A stretch of DNA of 64,000 nucleotides, taken from assembly GCA_019429425.1 (NCBI GenBank), contig JAHYIU010000001.1, positions 1 through 64,000 of the forward strand, given 5' to 3'. The number at the start of each line of letters is the position of its first letter. Position 1 is the first letter of the stretch. This document shows, piece by piece, positions 1 through 62,559 of the stretch. Made by a program: the position numbers and the translations under genes. Source of the DNA: Candidatus Syntrophosphaera sp. (GTDB lineage Bacteria; Cloacimonadota; Cloacimonadia; Cloacimonadales; Cloacimonadaceae). The notes beneath the pieces are model-generated. The model was not told where the DNA came from, did not search any database, and worked only from the letters and a program-made list of their open reading frames with translations.

Positions 1-10
1 ATTTATTCGC

Positions 11-363
11 GGCTCTCTTTTAAACTTAGTGGGTGAGCCCCGGAGGTGGCGACATATCATAGCGGTGGGTGCGCAGCAAACCGGGGTCCTCGCAAGTGAG
101 CGAAGCGAGCTTGTGGGGTGGAAAGCGGAGCCCCCCGTTTCAGTTAACGTCAGCATCCATGAGCCCCGGAGGGCGCGACAGAAGAAAACAATCCTGTGTC
201 TTATTGTTGTGTCGCACTCTCCGGGGATCACATCTACGTTGGGGCTTGGGTCGGGGGGCTGCACTTCCTACGGTCGTTCTGCATCCACCGCTATGATCTG
301 TCGCCCTCCGGGCTGATTTTACTTGATGAGCCTTAATTGATCCGCTTGATTTGAAAGAGAGCC
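11..363. mobile_element. MITE-like element with IS256-type ends
   Basis: The left end begins GGCTCTCTTTTAAACTTAG. The right end, read on the minus strand, begins GGCTCTCTTTCAAATCAAG, so these are imperfect terminal inverted repeats. The IS256-type remnant at 61567 starts with almost the same bases (GGCTCTCTTTCAAATCGAG). The element is flanked by TTATTCGC (3-10) and TTATTTGC (364-371), a 7/8 match that suits an 8-bp target duplication. It carries no credible transposase. Inside it, GAGCCCCGGAGG occurs twice forward (near 35 and 160) and once inverted (near 305-315). Stretches around 35-75 and 280-318 are complementary over roughly 35 nt, giving a large hairpin. The small reading frames inside it have no coding signal. 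It is probably mobilised in trans by an IS256-like transposase. Confidence 0.75.
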
Positions 364-1749
364 TTATTTGCCGATGCAGAAGGAAGAGAATATCTGCTGG
401 AGCAGGTCGTCGGTGGTGACGATGCCGAGGATCTCTTCCAGGGCCTTGCTGGCGGTGATCAGGTCGAAGGCGATGAATTCGAAGCCGGCCTCTTTGCGCA
501 AGGCCAGTTGCGCTTTTTCCAGGGCGGAGACGCAGCGTTCCAGAGCCGCCAGATGGCGCGCGTTGGTGAGCAGGGGATGGTCCAGTTCGTCCAGAGGCAG
601 TTCGAAACGCTTCAGGATGGCTTCCTGCAAGGCATCCAGGCCGCCCGGACTGACCACCGAGACGGGGATTCCGGCCTGGGGCGAGTAACCGTCGCGGACT
701 TTAGGGTTAGTCTCCGCGCCGTTTTCATCCGCCACGAGGTCGTATTTACTGGACAGCCAGAGGGTTTTGGTTCTGATCGCTTCAGGCAAGGGGACTTCTT
801 CCAAACTGGCTGGACCGGATCCCGCCTCCACCAGATAGAGCACCAGATCAGCGCTTTGCATCAGGTCCCGGCTGCGGTCGATGCCTTCCTTTTCTGTCAG
901 GTCCGAGCTGGCGCGCAGGCCCGCGGTGTCGTATAAAACGAGGGTGTAGCCGCGCAGCGATACCGATTCCTCGAGGTAATCGCGCGTGGTGCCGGGATGG
1001 GGGGTGACAATGGCGCGGTTGAACTTCAGGAAAGCGTTGAACAGCGAGGATTTGCCGGAATTGGGCGCTCCGGCCAGGCAGACGCGGATGCCCTCGCGGA
1101 TGTAGCGGCCCTGGGAACCCTCGCTGTGCATGGCTTTGGCCTGTTCCAGAATGCCATTGATCCTCTCCTGGAGGTCATCCAGATCGATCTGGGGCAGGTC
1201 CTGGTCGGCAAAATCGATGGCCAGTTCGCAGCGCAGGCGGGCTTCGGTGATGGCTGTCAAAAGCGCCTGCAGATGTTGGGACAATCCTCCCTGGACCTGC
1301 ATCAGGGCGGCGCTTTCGGCCTTGCTGCTTTTGGCCGTGATGAGGTCGTTGACCGCCTCAGCTTGGATCAGATCGAGCTTTCCGTTCAGCAGGGCGCGCA
1401 GGGTGAATTCCCCCGGTTCGGCCAGACGGGCGTCGTAAAGCAGGTTTTGCAGGATCCTGGAGGCGATCTGCGGATTCCCGTGGCAGGATATTTCCACGCT
1501 GTCCTCGCCCGTGTAGCTGAGCGGGGCGCGGAAAACGGTGCAGAGAACCTGGTCGAGGGCCCTGCCCTCCCGGTCGTGGAAAGTGCCCCTCAGAACGCGG
1601 TGCGATGGGGCTTTCAGCAATTTGGCCCGGGGCTGGAAAAACTGCGCCACGATGCCGATGCTGCCGTGACCGCTGATCCGGAGGACATTGATGGCGGCGT
1701 GGCCCGGTGGGGAGATCTGGGCGCAGATGGGATCACTTTGGCTGTGCAT
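364..1749 (-). CDS. mnmE: tRNA uridine-5-carboxymethylaminomethyl modification GTPase MnmE
   Basis: With MnmG, MnmE installs the aminomethyl-type modification on wobble uridine 34. The 461-aa length is normal. An N-terminal tetrahydrofolate-binding domain covers about residues 1-120. An embedded G domain follows, with P-loop GAPNSGKSS near 227-235 and DTAG near 274. The chain ends in the family's CIGK, whose cysteine is catalytically important. The G4 position reads SKYD instead of NKxD, so the Asn is Ser. The start ATG overlaps the dxs stop by one base (TGATG), so translation is probably coupled. The stop codon lies within the target duplication of the MITE at 11-363, so the insertion left the C-terminus intact. 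Confidence 0.95.
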   Translation of the reverse strand: MHSQSDPICAQISPPGHAAINVLRISGHGSIGIVAQFFQPRAKLLKAPSHRVLRGTFHDREGRALDQVLCTVFRAPLSYTGEDSVEISCHGNPQIASRILQNLLYDARLAEPGEFTLRALLNGKLDLIQAEAVNDLITAKSSKAESAALMQVQGGLSQHLQALLTAITEARLRCELAIDFADQDLPQIDLDDLQERINGILEQAKAMHSEGSQGRYIREGIRVCLAGAPNSGKSSLFNAFLKFNRAIVTPHPGTTRDYLEESVSLRGYTLVLYDTAGLRASSDLTEKEGIDRSRDLMQSADLVLYLVEAGSGPASLEEVPLPEAIRTKTLWLSSKYDLVADENGAETNPKVRDGYSPQAGIPVSVVSPGGLDALQEAILKRFELPLDELDHPLLTNARHLAALERCVSALEKAQLALRKEAGFEFIAFDLITASKALEEILGIVTTDDLLQQIFSSFCIGK

Positions 1750-3611
1750 CAGGCTGGCAGGTGTTTTTTGATCTCAGCAAGCAGCTTATCCGGAGTAAAA
1801 CCGATCCGGGCGTTGAGTTCGGAGATCTTGCCATGGGCGATGAAACTGTCCGGATAGCCGAAATTGATCACCCTGCAGGGATACTCCGCGAGCAACTGCG
1901 CGACGCGGGAACCCGTTCCGCCAATGATGGCGTTGGTCTCGAAAGTGAAGACATGGGTGCAGCTTTCCCCCAGTTTGCGGAGCAGTGGTTCGTCCAGGGG
2001 TTTGAGGCTGCGCAGGTTTACCAGCCAGGGTTTGCGGCCTTCCCGGGTCAGGAGTTCCCAGGTCTGGGATGCGACCGGCAAAGCGCCTCCGTCGGCCAGC
2101 AAAGCGATTTCCGCGCCTTTATGCACGGTCTGGGCCTTGCCCAAAGTGAATTTTCCCAGTTCCTTGCCCCCGCAGGGCGCGGCTCCACGCGGATAGCGGA
2201 TGGCGACGGGGCCATCTTTGTAGGTGGAGGCAAAGCGCAGCATGGCATCCAGTTCTTCCGCGGTGGCAGGTGAAAGGAGCACCAGATTGGGGATCCCGCT
2301 GAGCAGGGAAACGTCGAAGGCGCCGTGGTGCGTGGCTCCGTCCTCTCCCACCAATCCAGCCCGGTCGACACAAAAAACCACTGGCAGGCGGGGCAGGGCG
2401 ACGTCGTGGATGACCTGGTCCATGGCGCGCTGGAGGAAGGTGCTATAGATTGCCACGAACGGCTTGATGCCCTTGCAGGCCATGCCGGCTGCGAGAGTGA
2501 CGGCGTGCTGTTCGGCGATGCCGACATCGAAGAAGCGTTTGGGAAATCTCTTTTCAAAATCCGCCAGCCCCGTTCCGGAGGTCATGGCGGCCGTTATGGC
2601 GACCACATTGGGATCCGCAGCGGCAATTGAGCACAGATTGCGGCCGCAAACCTCGCTCCAGCTTTCGGTTCCGCTGCAGGCCTGCTTTCCGTTCCGCACC
2701 TCGAAGGGCCCCACGCCGTGGAACAGCGAGGAGTTCTTCTCCGCCGGGGCGTAGCCTTTTCCTTTTTGGGTGACCACATGCAAAAAGACCGGGCCCACCA
2801 TGTGGCGCTGGATGCGGCGGAGCATGGTGCACATCAGTTCGATGTCGTGGCCGTCGATGGGGCCGACGTATTTGAGGCCCAGGTCCTCGAAGATGATGCT
2901 GGGCACGAGGATGTTCATCATCGATTCCTCGAGCTTCTGGGCGCCGAGGATGAAACGGCGGCGCAGATTGTCGGGCAGGGTGGTGCTGAGATCCCAGATC
3001 TGCTGTTTCATCGTGTTGTAGGGCCGGCTGGCCATCATGCGGGCCAGGTATTTCTGAAGGCCGCCCACGTTTTTGGAAATGGACATGGCGTTGTCGTTGA
3101 GGATCACCAGGAATTTATCTTTCTGGAGGTGGCCCGCATGGTTGAGGGCTTCGAAGCTCATGCCGCCGGTGAGGGCTCCATCCCCGATCACGGCGATGCT
3201 GTGGCCCTTTTCCCGAAGCAGGTCGCGGGCGCAGGAAAGGCCCAATGCGGCGGAGACGGAAGTGCTGCTGTGGCCTGTGGAAAAGGCATCGCAGGGGCTT
3301 TCATCCCGGTTCGTGAAACCGCTGATCCCATCCAGGCTGCGCAGGGTGTCGAAACGGTCGTTGCGTCCGGTGAGGATCTTCCAAGCGTAGCTTTGATGGC
3401 CAACGTCCCAGACGACGCGATCATGGATGGGGTCAAAAACGTTCAGCAGGGCGATGGTGAGGTCCACCGCTCCGAGGCTGGGCGCGACGTGCCCGCCGGT
3501 GTGGGAAACCACGTCCACAATGCGTTTGCGCACTTCCCGGGCCAGGAGCTCAAGCTCGTTTGGCTTGAGATTCCTGATCTCCGCGGGGTCGTTTAGCTTT
3601 TCCAGGATCAT
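1749..3611 (-). CDS. dxs: 1-deoxy-D-xylulose-5-phosphate synthase
   Basis: This thiamine-diphosphate enzyme condenses pyruvate with glyceraldehyde 3-phosphate to start the MEP isoprenoid pathway in the cytoplasm. The 620-aa length is typical. Visible signatures are HVAPSLGAVDLT near residue 40, the ThDP/Mg motif GDGALTGG near 143, IAEQHAVTLAAGMA with the catalytic Glu, and DRAGLVGEDGATHHG in the pyrimidine domain. It overlaps the upstream BatA-like gene by ATGA and the downstream mnmE by one base, so it is inside a minus-strand operon. Nothing is missing. Confidence 0.97.
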   Translation of the reverse strand: MILEKLNDPAEIRNLKPNELELLAREVRKRIVDVVSHTGGHVAPSLGAVDLTIALLNVFDPIHDRVVWDVGHQSYAWKILTGRNDRFDTLRSLDGISGFTNRDESPCDAFSTGHSSTSVSAALGLSCARDLLREKGHSIAVIGDGALTGGMSFEALNHAGHLQKDKFLVILNDNAMSISKNVGGLQKYLARMMASRPYNTMKQQIWDLSTTLPDNLRRRFILGAQKLEESMMNILVPSIIFEDLGLKYVGPIDGHDIELMCTMLRRIQRHMVGPVFLHVVTQKGKGYAPAEKNSSLFHGVGPFEVRNGKQACSGTESWSEVCGRNLCSIAAADPNVVAITAAMTSGTGLADFEKRFPKRFFDVGIAEQHAVTLAAGMACKGIKPFVAIYSTFLQRAMDQVIHDVALPRLPVVFCVDRAGLVGEDGATHHGAFDVSLLSGIPNLVLLSPATAEELDAMLRFASTYKDGPVAIRYPRGAAPCGGKELGKFTLGKAQTVHKGAEIALLADGGALPVASQTWELLTREGRKPWLVNLRSLKPLDEPLLRKLGESCTHVFTFETNAIIGGTGSRVAQLLAEYPCRVINFGYPDSFIAHGKISELNARIGFTPDKLLAEIKKHLPA

Positions 3612-5581
3612 GTTGTGCTCCCTGTAGAAGGGTTCTTGGCTGCCGAGGTGGGACGCAGTTCCTCGGCCTTGACCAGGATGATCTCCAAAACAACCAGCAG
3701 CAGTGCCGCCGCCATCAGTATTTTCCAGAGATCGTGTCCCAAGCGGGTGTGAAAGAGGGCGTTTTGCCAGTTGGCGCCCAAGAGTTTGACGTTCTTCAGG
3801 CCCTTGTAGTCCATGGGCTCAAATTCGCTTTCCTGGCGGGGCGTGTCCACAGCCAGCAGGGTTTCGGAGCCGTCGGCCTTCCTGAGGGTGTAAATTCCAG
3901 GCTGGGCGAGTGTGTGTGTCCGGTTGGCCAGGACCAGGACGCTTCCGTCGGGAAGCACGACCTGATGGGCGCTGACGGCATCGCCCAAGGCATGGCTTTC
4001 TCCTGAGGCAATGATGGAACTGGTGTATTCCAGGCTGCGATAGGCAAAAACGGCAAAGGCGGCATCCAAGAAGAATGCGGAGCGCTGGCTGGCCAGATCG
4101 AAGTTCCAAAGCAGGAAGTTGTCTTTGGCCAGGGCGAAAACATCGCCTCCACCGGCCAGAAGGGTCGTGGCATCGGTCCCGGAGATCTGCCAGAAACCCG
4201 TTATCCCCTTATACTGGATGTTCTTGCCTGCCATCAGCGAAGTGGTGAAATGGTGGGGATTTACGTAACCGATGCTCCCTTCCCGGGCCTGGAAAGCGCC
4301 GATGCTGACGCCAAAGAGTCCACCCAGCCAGGTTTTCTGCTCCGGGCTGAGGTTTTGGTCGAGGCAGAAGAGCACTCCGCGGCCGCCGGACCGCAGGGTC
4401 TCGACCAACTCGCGCAGTTTGGGGGAAAGATGGGTCGAAGCCTGCAAAACGAAGGTCTGGTACTGGTTCAGCGTGGCCAGGTTGATGCTCTGGGGATCCA
4501 GGACGTCGATCCGGCCACCGGGGCCAGTGTAAACCTGCAGCAGCGATCTCAGATAGAGTGGCAAGGCGGCGCGGTCTGAGATGACTGCCACCCGGGGCGC
4601 GAGTTGGAAAGGAAAGGCGAAATGGCTGCGGTTGTCGTGCTCGAGGCGGTCGTCCATGACCTCGACGTAGCCGCTTTGCCAGCCATCCTGGCGGATGTCG
4701 ACCACGATGCTCTGGTTGACGGTCTGGCGCGCGGGCAGGTTGACGAATTTCTCGGCGACCTTGGCATCTCCGAGCACAACCTTGACCAGCACTTCATTGC
4801 GGTCCTCCGCGCCGTGATTGCTGAGCCTGAACTCAATGCTCTGGCGGCGGGATTTTTCCACCAGCTGGGGCAGCACGGCCGCGCCAGAACAGCTCAGATT
4901 GTCGAACTCGCGGTCTTGGGCGATGTTGATGACATTGAGGTTTTGCCCCTCCGGAACTGGATATTCCTGCTTCTGGCCGTCGGTGATCAGATAGAGCTCG
5001 CGATTTGCCAATTGGGTTTCGCGCAGCTTTTCCTCGGCCAGGCTGACCATGTTTGCCAGAGGCAACGGAGAATAGGTCACCCCGATCTGGCTTATCAGGC
5101 CCTGGGGAAAAGAGCCGGCATAGATCTGGGCGTGGAGGCGGTTCCAAGCCTCATCGGAAGTGATCAGGACCAGCCTGTCCTGCGGCGTGCAGAGGGCTTC
5201 GATCTCCCGGACCGCGTCCTTCGCCCGGTCCAGGTCGCTCCGGGATTCACGCACGTAATCCAGGCTGAAAGAGGTATCCAGCAGAATGGCGATGGCCGTG
5301 GGCGGGTGTTTTTGGGCAGGTTTCAGATGTTTGGATTGAAGCAGCGGACGGGTCGCCGCCAGGGTCACCAGCAAAATGATCAGCATGCGGATGATGAGCA
5401 GGAGGATGTTTTTCAGGCGGGTGCGCTTTTTCTCCTGTTCCTGGCTGGCCTTGATGAAGCGCAGGGTTGGAAAGACGACGCGTTTGGGTTTCTTTTTGGC
5501 CAGCAGCCAGATGATCAGGGGCAGGATGGTGGCTGCCGTGAACAGCAGCAGCCCGGAGTTTAAAAAGCTCAATCCGCCCAT
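3608..5581 (-). CDS. BatA-like membrane protein with VWA domain
   Basis: This 657-aa protein begins with the aerotolerance (BatA) N-terminal module: two membrane segments at about 8-25 and 60-80 flanking a basic KKKPKR stretch. A von Willebrand A domain follows, with a MIDAS-like DTSFS near 106-110, then a long domain of possible class I glutamine amidotransferase-like fold. A C-terminal membrane helix ends near residue 640. Family members are membrane proteins often linked to MoxR/Bat stress or assembly clusters, but no MoxR or other Bat gene is next to it here. It overlaps dxs by 4 nt and lies 3 nt from the PorV-like gene. Its molecular role is unknown. Confidence 0.75.
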   Translation of the reverse strand: MGGLSFLNSGLLLFTAATILPLIIWLLAKKKPKRVVFPTLRFIKASQEQEKKRTRLKNILLLIIRMLIILLVTLAATRPLLQSKHLKPAQKHPPTAIAILLDTSFSLDYVRESRSDLDRAKDAVREIEALCTPQDRLVLITSDEAWNRLHAQIYAGSFPQGLISQIGVTYSPLPLANMVSLAEEKLRETQLANRELYLITDGQKQEYPVPEGQNLNVINIAQDREFDNLSCSGAAVLPQLVEKSRRQSIEFRLSNHGAEDRNEVLVKVVLGDAKVAEKFVNLPARQTVNQSIVVDIRQDGWQSGYVEVMDDRLEHDNRSHFAFPFQLAPRVAVISDRAALPLYLRSLLQVYTGPGGRIDVLDPQSINLATLNQYQTFVLQASTHLSPKLRELVETLRSGGRGVLFCLDQNLSPEQKTWLGGLFGVSIGAFQAREGSIGYVNPHHFTTSLMAGKNIQYKGITGFWQISGTDATTLLAGGGDVFALAKDNFLLWNFDLASQRSAFFLDAAFAVFAYRSLEYTSSIIASGESHALGDAVSAHQVVLPDGSVLVLANRTHTLAQPGIYTLRKADGSETLLAVDTPRQESEFEPMDYKGLKNVKLLGANWQNALFHTRLGHDLWKILMAAALLLVVLEIILVKAEELRPTSAAKNPSTGSTT

Positions 5582-61566: not shown

Positions 61567-62559
61567 GGCTCTCTTTCAAATCGAGTGGGTGATTGGCGCG
61601 TCAAATCCGGAGTGAACAAGCAGCGGGTTGACCGGGCCTTGATCAGCATCATCAGCGAGGCCTATTTTGCCGGTGTCTCAACCCGCAGGATGAATCAGCT
61701 GTTCGTTGATCTGGGGCTTTCAAACATTGATCGCAGCTTTGTAAGCCGTTGCGCAAAGCAGATCGACGCGGAAGTGGAAGTTTGGAAGAACAGGGAATTG
61801 GACAATCGGTATGCCTATATCTGGCTTGACGCGATCTACACCAAGATCCGGACAGAGAAGGGTGTGCGGCCGACAGCGGTATTGATTGCCATTGGTCTGA
61901 AGGAAGACGGCCATCGTGATGTTTTGGGTCTTCACTTGGGGAACCGTGAAAGTTACTACAACTGGAAGGACTTCCTGCAAAGCCTCAAAGAGCGTGGTTT
62001 GAAGCGTAGCGAGCTCTGGATCAGTGACGAGCATGACGGCCTGATCAAGTCGATAGAAGAGTGTTTTCCCGGCCAGCTCAGGCAACGTTGTATCGTCCAC
62101 TGGATGCGCAATGCCCAGAGCAAGGTGTCAAAGACCGATCTATTATGGTTGTTGCCGCTCCTGAAAGACCTGGTGGGCTCAAGAACGAGGGAATCGTTTG
62201 AACTTGCCTGGAGGCATTTGTGCAGCGTGGTCGAAGCCAAAGGGAAAGATAAGCTTGGGAGTTGGCTGGACGACACTTATCATGAGATTTCCGTGTATCT
62301 GGAGTTCCCCACCGGCCACTGGAGCAGGATAAAGTCCACCAACCCGCTTGAAAGGCTCAATGAAGAGCTCCGGCGCAGGGAAAAGAGCATCCGTATCTTT
62401 CCCGACGAAAAGAGCTGCATGCGCCTTCTGGGCGCTATCCTGCAAGGGTATTCTGAAGATTGGACCAGTGGCAGGATCTATCTGTCAGAGCCCTTGGAAA
62501 AGATCAGGGAAATCCAGAAAAGATCGATACCGGTCGAGTCGCAGCAAGGTAGCTGTTGA
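61567..62559 (+). mobile_element. IS256-family element, remnant
   Basis: The left end GGCTCTCTTTCAAATCGAG starts at 61567 and matches the ends of the MITE at 11-363. The transposase frame opens within that end. I found no matching right end (ATTTGAAAGAGAGCC) before 64000 and no second copy of the flanking ATTTTTAA (61559-61566). The element is therefore probably truncated on the right, in addition to having lost the transposase N-terminus. Confidence 0.75.
61585..62559 (+). CDS. IS256-family transposase, N-terminally truncated
   Basis: This is a 324-aa mutator-type transposase starting at GTG 61585. The catalytic DDE residues are all visible: the first Asp in YIWLDAIYTK near 74, the second in WISDEHDG, and the Glu in STNPLERLNEELRR near 250-263. 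RCIVHWMRN precedes the third. Full IS256 transposases are about 390 aa; the 70-80 residues usually preceding GVSTR are missing, apparently because the left terminal repeat is joined to the middle of the gene. It is probably inactive. Confidence 0.87.
   Translation: MGDWRVKSGVNKQRVDRALISIISEAYFAGVSTRRMNQLFVDLGLSNIDRSFVSRCAKQIDAEVEVWKNRELDNRYAYIWLDAIYTKIRTEKGVRPTAVLIAIGLKEDGHRDVLGLHLGNRESYYNWKDFLQSLKERGLKRSELWISDEHDGLIKSIEECFPGQLRQRCIVHWMRNAQSKVSKTDLLWLLPLLKDLVGSRTRESFELAWRHLCSVVEAKGKDKLGSWLDDTYHEISVYLEFPTGHWSRIKSTNPLERLNEELRRREKSIRIFPDEKSCMRLLGAILQGYSEDWTSGRIYLSEPLEKIREIQKRSIPVESQQGSC

What the first reader, a model, noticed from the sequence alone, without database searches (positions are those of the whole stretch)
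11..363. MITE with same ends as the IS256-type remnant 61 kb away
The element has matching 15-26 bp ends, an 8-bp near-perfect target duplication and no transposase. The IS remnant at 61567 has the same left end and a defective transposase. A full-length IS256 relative likely exists elsewhere to move it. The MITE also contains AGCCCCGGAGG repeats that appear as inverted copies, so it is a nested mosaic.
Basis: seen in the sequence. Interest (0 to 1): 0.55.

Follow-up and report, generated by a model that had tools for sequence, protein, structure and literature searches.

The report
Miniature transposon moved by ISL3 transposase
A 353-base stretch with no transposase gene, sitting at the end of a tRNA-modification gene in what is probably a Cloacimonadota bacterium, belongs to a family of small jumping DNAs whose ends match those of ISL3-type insertion sequences rather than the IS256 type first suspected; such elements are already known elsewhere, so this is ordinary but now better assigned.

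Summary
In detail: window 11-363 is a 353-bp element without a transposase, with imperfect inverted ends and a 7-of-8 target duplication, inserted at the stop codon of mnmE. Its ends belong to a large family: GGCTCTCTTTCAAAYYRAGTGGGT, 40 sites in this genome against 0 for the reversed control; 28 of 29 exact-match contigs elsewhere are named Cloacimonadota. IS256 elements here have different ends (GGTAGTGTCTCAAAGG...; one full relative is flanked by a repeat of at least 8 bp, GGAAACAA). The "remnant" at 61567 is a chimera: 64 bp of a MITE left end joined to an internal IS256 fragment at a 10-bp overlap. The matching ends belong to ISL3 elements: 12 of 21 ISL3-bearing loci have such an end, and in several the transposase frame runs into it. 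One relative has a pair of ISL3-like ends, 23 and 24 of 24 identical to the MITE consensus, with a perfect 8-bp duplication across two contigs. This genome carries two ISL3 copies whose middles are missing from the assembly, plus ISL3 C-terminal relics on ends of the MITE type. Verdict: ISL3-mobilised MITE with a REP-like interior. ISL3 MITEs are published: a new member of a known kind.

The parts
3..10 (.). left copy of the 8-bp target duplication (TTATTCGC)
11..34 (+). left terminal inverted repeat of the MITE (22 of 24 to the family pattern)
39..72 (+). left arm of the REP-like repeat (AGCCCCGGAGG...ATCATAGCGGTGG), inverted copy at 281-312
   Evidence: 88% over 34
161..230 (.). internal palindrome with AGCCCCGGAGGGCGCGACA arms (limits read by eye)
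281..312 (-). right arm of the REP-like repeat; a 19-bp motif in it has 8 sites in the genome at <=3 mismatches (this one included), control 0
340..363 (-). right terminal inverted repeat of the MITE (22 of 24 to the family pattern)
364..371 (.). right copy of the target duplication (TTATTTGC); contains the stop codon of mnmE
364..1749 (-). mnmE (trmE) tRNA-modification GTPase, 461 aa, host gene whose 3' end is the insertion site
61567..61630 (+). left 64 bp of a 196-bp-type MITE (63 of 64 identical)
61621..62545 (+). internal fragment of an IS256-family element (93% to the C32 copy); ORF 61585-62559 lacks about the first 95 profile positions

Best explanation
The element is a non-autonomous ISL3-type MITE. 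Shown from sequence: its 24-bp ends have the boxes GGYTC...TTCAA...GTGGGT found at the ends of many Cloacimonadota ISL3 elements, it duplicates 8 bp as they do, and it has no transposase of the IS256 or ISL3 kind. Shown: two ISL3 copies lie in the same genome with paired 8-bp flanks. Inferred: an ISL3 transposase, supplied in trans, binds and cuts the ends and inserts the element into an AT-rich target. At this locus the target was the last bases of mnmE, and the duplication (GCAAATAA on the gene strand) kept the stop codon, so the gene stayed whole. Inferred: the interior was assembled from REP-like palindromes present elsewhere in the genome and is not needed for movement. The site at 61567 is a separate recombination product of a MITE end and an IS256 fragment.
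For: Family: 40 sites in the own genome for the 24-bp end at <=1 mismatch, control 0; 13 of 60 genomes examined (own included) have it. 28 of 29 exact-match stretches in genome contigs are named Cloacimonadota/Cloacimonetes. Duplications: 9 of 21 end pairs in own loci have a duplication with <=1 mismatch against 2.1% of 420 swapped pairs; 11 of 34 in relatives against 0.6% of 1122. ISL3 link: of 21 loci brought in by an ISL3 transposase match (53 kb), 12 hold a 24-mer scoring >=17 of 24 to the end pattern, against 1 such site on both strands of 61 kb of the window. Transposase C-terminal frames run into or stop within about 35 bp of such ends in G030, G068, G091 and G120. The full ISL3 in G068 (L168, 1346 bp, flanks 7 of 8) is NCBIfam transpos_ISL3 at 253.6 bits, cut-off 180. 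G022 has a left and a right end on two contigs, 23/24 and 24/24 to the MITE consensus, with the same 8-bp flank TTTCATAT; the right one encodes an ISL3 C-terminus. Own genome: left halves at the end of C36 and start of C105 (126 of 126 identical), right halves at the ends of C37 and C10 (125 of 125), flanks pairing as ATATAAAA and TTTTTTTT. C28 (E 2.9e-8 to the G068 transposase) and C32 (weaker, E 0.26; 94% over 17 aa to the C28 relic) keep an ISL3 C-terminus on an end that fits the MITE pattern 24 of 24.
Against: No whole ISL3 transposase is assembled in this genome: PF01610 gave 0 hits, so whether the two copies are intact is unknown. Their ends match the MITE consensus at only 16 and 18 of 24, and one of the two paired flanks is a homopolymer (TTTTTTTT), which says little. 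The C28 relic alignment holds one in-frame TAG. The G022 right-end frame has an internal stop, its middle is not assembled, and its left end carries no coding sequence: it was called ISL3 from a short likeness next to the end (84-88% over 16-19 bp, E 0.006). 9 of the 21 ISL3 loci have no 24-mer scoring >=17, so only part of the phylum's ISL3 elements share these ends. 12 of the 21 own pairs and 23 of the 34 relative pairs lack a duplication with <=1 mismatch (some are wrong pairings or rearranged copies). The 353-bp element as a whole has no second copy; only parts recur. Movement was not observed.
Confidence: 0.9

Rival explanations
1. The MITE derives from and is moved by the IS256-family elements of this genome.
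For: The IS256 fragment at 61621-62545 is preceded by the MITE left end, and an IS256 relative is also flanked by a repeat of about 8 bp (GGAAACAA).
Against: The C23 and C32 IS256 copies begin at GGTAGYGTCTCAAAGG. The G069 and G025 copies have ends 11 and 9 of 24 to the MITE consensus, no better when slid by up to 5 bases. The window IS256 fragment starts inside the transposase gene and overlaps the MITE part by 10 bp.
Confidence: 0.03
2. The element is a decaying ISL3-type relic whose transposase source has been lost, so it no longer moves in this genome (compatible with the best explanation of its origin).
For: The 353-bp element has a duplication with one mismatch, diverged ends (19 of 26) and no second whole copy. 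No full ISL3 transposase is assembled. The ISL3 with the MITE-type end survives only as 15-25-aa relics.
Against: Two ISL3 copies with identical 125-126-bp termini and paired flanks exist in the genome, and 6 of 12 own elements of 193-196 bp have exact duplications.
Confidence: 0.45
3. The stretch is a REP/BIME-like palindromic cluster dispersed by a REP-associated transposase, and the inverted ends are incidental.
For: The interior is built of REP-like palindromes found elsewhere, at C3:25998 without any end of this type in the fetched stretch and at C4:9550 beside only a partial end.
Against: The 24-bp ends and duplications occur on elements with other interiors, and ISL3 elements have the same kind of ends. 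A REP-associated transposase was not searched for.
Confidence: 0.05

Closest known systems
Microcystis aeruginosa 187-nt MITE attributed to ISL3 (PMC11448079; passages seen)
   Same: Ends starting GGCTCTTCG shared with ISL3 transposases, 8-nt duplications, stem-loop folding, no transposase
   Different: Another phylum and sequence; here the end is GGCTCTCTTTCAAA...GTGGGT and the interiors vary and often hold REP-like palindromes
ISMac21 (ISL3) MITE of Methanosarcina acetivorans, 179 bp (PMC3852290; one table passage seen)
   Same: MITE with an ISL3 autonomous partner
   Different: An archaeon; its sequence was not compared here
TIMEs, Tn3-derived miniature elements with mosaic descendants (PMC4133298; passages seen)
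   Same: Non-autonomous elements defined by the ends of an autonomous family; mosaics arise from them
   Different: Tn3 ends and 5-6-bp duplications. The same table lists ISPpu12a (ISL3) with IR 24/21 and an 8-bp duplication, as found here
Type II MITEs as defined in a review of prokaryotic MITEs (PMC10969869; passages seen)
   Same: Similarity to the autonomous IS confined to the terminal repeats
   Different: Two own-genome relics (C28, C32) keep some ISL3 coding sequence, closer to type I

Membership tests
MITE mobilised by ISL3 | Terminal inverted repeats match those of an ISL3 element | tested here: met
   MITE consensus against 14 ISL3 ends chosen for their likeness: 15-24 of 24, G022 23 and 24; unselected test: 12 of 21 ISL3 loci with a score >=17 against 1 site in 61 kb of window
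MITE mobilised by ISL3 | 8-bp target duplication | tested here: met
   Window element 7 of 8; 9 of 21 own and 11 of 34 relative pairs with <=1 mismatch against 2.1% and 0.6% in swapped controls
MITE mobilised by ISL3 | No transposase gene, short (below about 1 kb) | tested here: met
   353 bp; no PF00872 or PF01610 hit inside; longest listed ORF inside 95 aa, not run against profiles
MITE mobilised by ISL3 | Multi-copy family | tested here: met
   40 own sites of the 24-bp end, 12 own elements of 193-196 bp; the 353-bp form itself is single copy
MITE mobilised by ISL3 | Autonomous partner with intact transposase in the same genome | tested here: inconclusive
   Two ISL3 copies seen only as contig-end halves, middle not assembled
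MITE mobilised by ISL3 | Transposition in trans demonstrated | not testable with these tools
   Needs a mobility assay
MITE of IS256 | Terminal inverted repeats match those of the IS256 elements | tested here: not met
   IS256 ends of G069 and G025 match at 9-11 of 24
REP/BIME element | Palindromic repeat units dispersed in the genome | tested here: met
   Interior only: 8 sites for the 19-bp motif at <=3 mismatches, control 0, a low number for a REP family
REP/BIME element | Associated REP tyrosine transposase | not tested
   No search made

The most novel reading that the evidence does not exclude
In Cloacimonadota, ISL3 ends act as a loose packaging system. A 24-bp end pair mobilises almost any short DNA between two ends (REP hairpins, gene fragments), with some preference for the T-tracts of intrinsic terminators, so that these elements swap the 3' ends of transcripts across the genome.
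Probability: 0.1. Interest if true: 0.45.

Novelty: new member of a known kind. Interest (0 to 1): 0.22.

Why it matters
It moves the assignment of a Cloacimonadota MITE family from IS256 to ISL3, shows how a MITE-IS chimera can mislead a reader, and gives an end sequence and duplication length with which the family can be annotated in other genomes of a largely uncultured phylum. It does not open a new mechanism.

Tried and rejected
IS256 as mobiliser: rejected by the real IS256 ends. A transposase beside unpaired MITE-type ends: loci L086-L144 were scanned for ORFs of 120 aa or more inside ends without a partner, at most six printed per end; by eye, apart from the window's own IS256 fragment (L089), none looked like a transposase (not run against profiles, and the inside of paired ends was not examined for ORFs). 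A first reading of the C28 relic in another frame (56 aa) matched parts of long frames in relatives and in this genome, which suggests a captured gene fragment; the ISL3 C-terminus lies in a different frame. ISL3 loci L145, L148, L150, L165, L170, L172 and L173 have no 24-mer of 16 or more to the end pattern, L167 and L171 only 16, and L146, the full-length ISL3 in the same genus, only 17. Terminator targeting: 5 of 11 own and 2 of 12 relative elements (duplication mismatches <=2) sit at a hairpin plus T-tract, against 132 of 1500 AT-rich and 334 of 1500 A- or T-rich control sites. This is weak and not claimed. Rfam: one match far below its cut-off (Acido-Lenti-1, 15 bits against 37), taken as chance. 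No viral contig has an exact match to the 24-bp end. Literature: searches; no paper on Cloacimonadota MITEs was among the titles listed (20 of 246 shown, 20 of 210), which covers this library only.

Full report
What is there. The window is the first 64 kb of contig C1 of a 134-contig, 2.38-Mb genome. 28 of 29 named contigs carrying the same end are from Candidatus Cloacimonadota, so the window is taken to be from that phylum (inference). At 11-363 lies a 353-bp element with ends agreeing at 13 of 15 and 19 of 26, flanked by TTATTCGC and TTATTTGC. In the window it is the only one of 98 comparable inverted pairs with a duplication of at most one mismatch. It abuts mnmE (364-1749, minus strand), and the right duplication includes the mnmE stop codon, so the insertion left the gene complete.

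The family. The 16-bp end gives 80 sites in the genome at <=3 mismatches against 2 for the reversed pattern. The 24-bp end GGCTCTCTTTCAAAYYRAGTGGGT gives 40 at <=1 mismatch against 0. Pairing ends within 100-1000 bp (each end >=17 of 24, one >=20) gave 21 candidate pairs in own loci and 34 in the other loci; 9 and 11 have a duplication with at most one mismatch, against 2.1% of 420 and 0.6% of 1122 swapped pairs. The commonest form among the own pairs is 193-196 bp: 12 elements, 6 with exact duplications and 6 with 4-6 mismatches. Interiors vary: REP-like palindromes, 400-850-bp mosaics, and in C28 a stretch resembling protein-coding sequence found elsewhere in the genome (E 2.2e-14 at C23).

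Not IS256. PF00872 finds three places in the genome: C23, C32 and the window site. The C23 and C32 copies share sequence from GGTAGYGTCTCAAAGG onwards, with different DNA before it. A related IS256 is found in 35 of 97 genomes searched (at most a few candidates scored per genome). The G069 copy is full length, about 1574 bp, with ends GGTAGTGTCTCAAAGG... and AGTTGAGTCCCAAATG..., and flanks GGAAACAA on both sides; the repeated stretch can be read as up to 11 bp. Its ends match the MITE consensus at 11 and 9 of 24, no better when slid by up to 5 bases; the same holds for G025. Of the five other copies examined, L194, L198 and L200 show similar end pairs without a clear duplication, and for L193 and L195 no right end was found. 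At 61567 the first 64 bp match the 196-bp MITE at 63 of 64 and IS256 similarity starts at 61621, so the two overlap by 10 bp, CAGCGGGTTG. The C23 and C32 copies agree with that stretch at 8 of 10 each (by eye). This is a join of two elements, most simply by short homology (inference).

ISL3 instead. PF01610 has no hit in the own assembly, hits in 7 of 60 relatives and in 16 of 124 genomes of the phylum. Of the 21 loci brought in by these matches, 12 hold a 24-mer of 17 or more to the end pattern in 53 kb, against one in both strands of 61 kb of window; 9 do not. In G030, G068 and G091 the C-terminal coding frame runs into such ends, and in G120 it stops about 35 bp short. In G014 a broken ISL3 match ends 14 bp from the outer base of GGCTCTCTTTCAAACTAG. 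G068 holds a full ISL3 of 1346 bp with a frame of 420 codons (NCBIfam ISL3, 253.6 bits) and flanks agreeing at 7 of 8. G091 holds another with somewhat different ends (19 and 15 of 24 to the MITE consensus) and exact flanks AAAAAATG. G022 has a left and a right end on two contigs, 23 and 24 of 24 to the MITE consensus, both contigs stopping inside the element, with the same flank TTTCATAT. Its right end encodes an ISL3 C-terminus with one internal stop; its left end is called ISL3 only from a short likeness to the own and G068 left ends (16-19 bp at 84-88%, E 0.006).

In the own genome, a protein search with the G068 transposase finds C-terminal codons at the ends of C37 (E 1.4e-16) and C10 (8.2e-16), and weakly N-terminal codons at the end of C36 and start of C105 (E 0.65 each, 17 aa). 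The weak pair is supported by the DNA: both left termini begin with GGCTCAAGTTCAATTATGGTGGGT and lie at contig ends, 126 of 126 identical; the right termini are 125 of 125 identical. The flanks pair exactly: C36 with C37 (ATATAAAA) and C105 with C10 (TTTTTTTT, a homopolymer). Two ISL3 copies are therefore present with about 1.1 kb missing from the assembly (length inferred from the G068 copy). C28 keeps a 25-aa ISL3 C-terminus (E 2.9e-8, one in-frame TAG in that alignment) and C32 a 15-17-aa one (E 0.26; 94% to C28), both on GGCTCTCTTTCAAACTAAGTGGGT.

Mechanism. The best reading is trans-mobilisation by an ISL3 transposase. Shown: shared end boxes, 8-bp duplications, multiple copies, partner elements present. 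Inferred: binding, cutting and insertion. Open: whether the present copies encode a working transposase, and whether the two own copies (ends 16 and 18 of 24 to the consensus) or a closer relative moved this element.

Interior. The arms 39-72 and 281-312 are inverted copies, about 161-230 is a palindrome, and parts recur outside complete MITEs (C3:25998, C4:9550). The strand folds at -86.1 kcal/mol against a shuffle mean of -54.85. 'Nested mosaic' is a fair description.

Known or new. An ISL3-attributed MITE with GGCTCTTCG ends and 8-nt duplications is published for Microcystis (PMC11448079, passages), and an ISL3 MITE for Methanosarcina acetivorans (PMC3852290, one passage). ISPpu12a, an ISL3 element, is listed with IR 24/21 and an 8-bp duplication (PMC4133298, passages). 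This is a new member of a known kind.

Noticed in passing
window 61567-62545: Chimera of a MITE left end and an IS256 transposase fragment joined at a 10-bp overlap; the resulting ORF starts inside the MITE end.
   Followed up: yes
L085 (C127) 3232-3354: A 74% copy of the mnmE 3' end in the same genome, with no ORF of 80 aa or more over it, on a 3.5-kb contig; either an old duplication or a stray contig.
   Followed up: partly
L126 (JAKQJK010000107.1) 3954-4306: A 353-bp element with the same ends and an exact duplication CAAATTCA on a contig labelled Pseudomonadota; misbinning or transfer.
   Followed up: no
own elements in L006, L010, L023, L024, L029: Insertion at the T-tract of a hairpin that looks like an intrinsic terminator, 5 of 11 own elements; weak against the stricter control.
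   Followed up: partly
L054 (C28) 618-1463: Nested arrangement of three MITE-type ends, one carrying the ISL3 C-terminal relic, with a stretch resembling a captured gene fragment beside it.
   Followed up: partly
G003 C6 and C15, G072 C14, C61 and C101, own C53, contig starts: Contigs that begin within the first 130-190 bp of the IS256 element, so IS256 copy number is probably hidden by assembly breaks.
   Followed up: no
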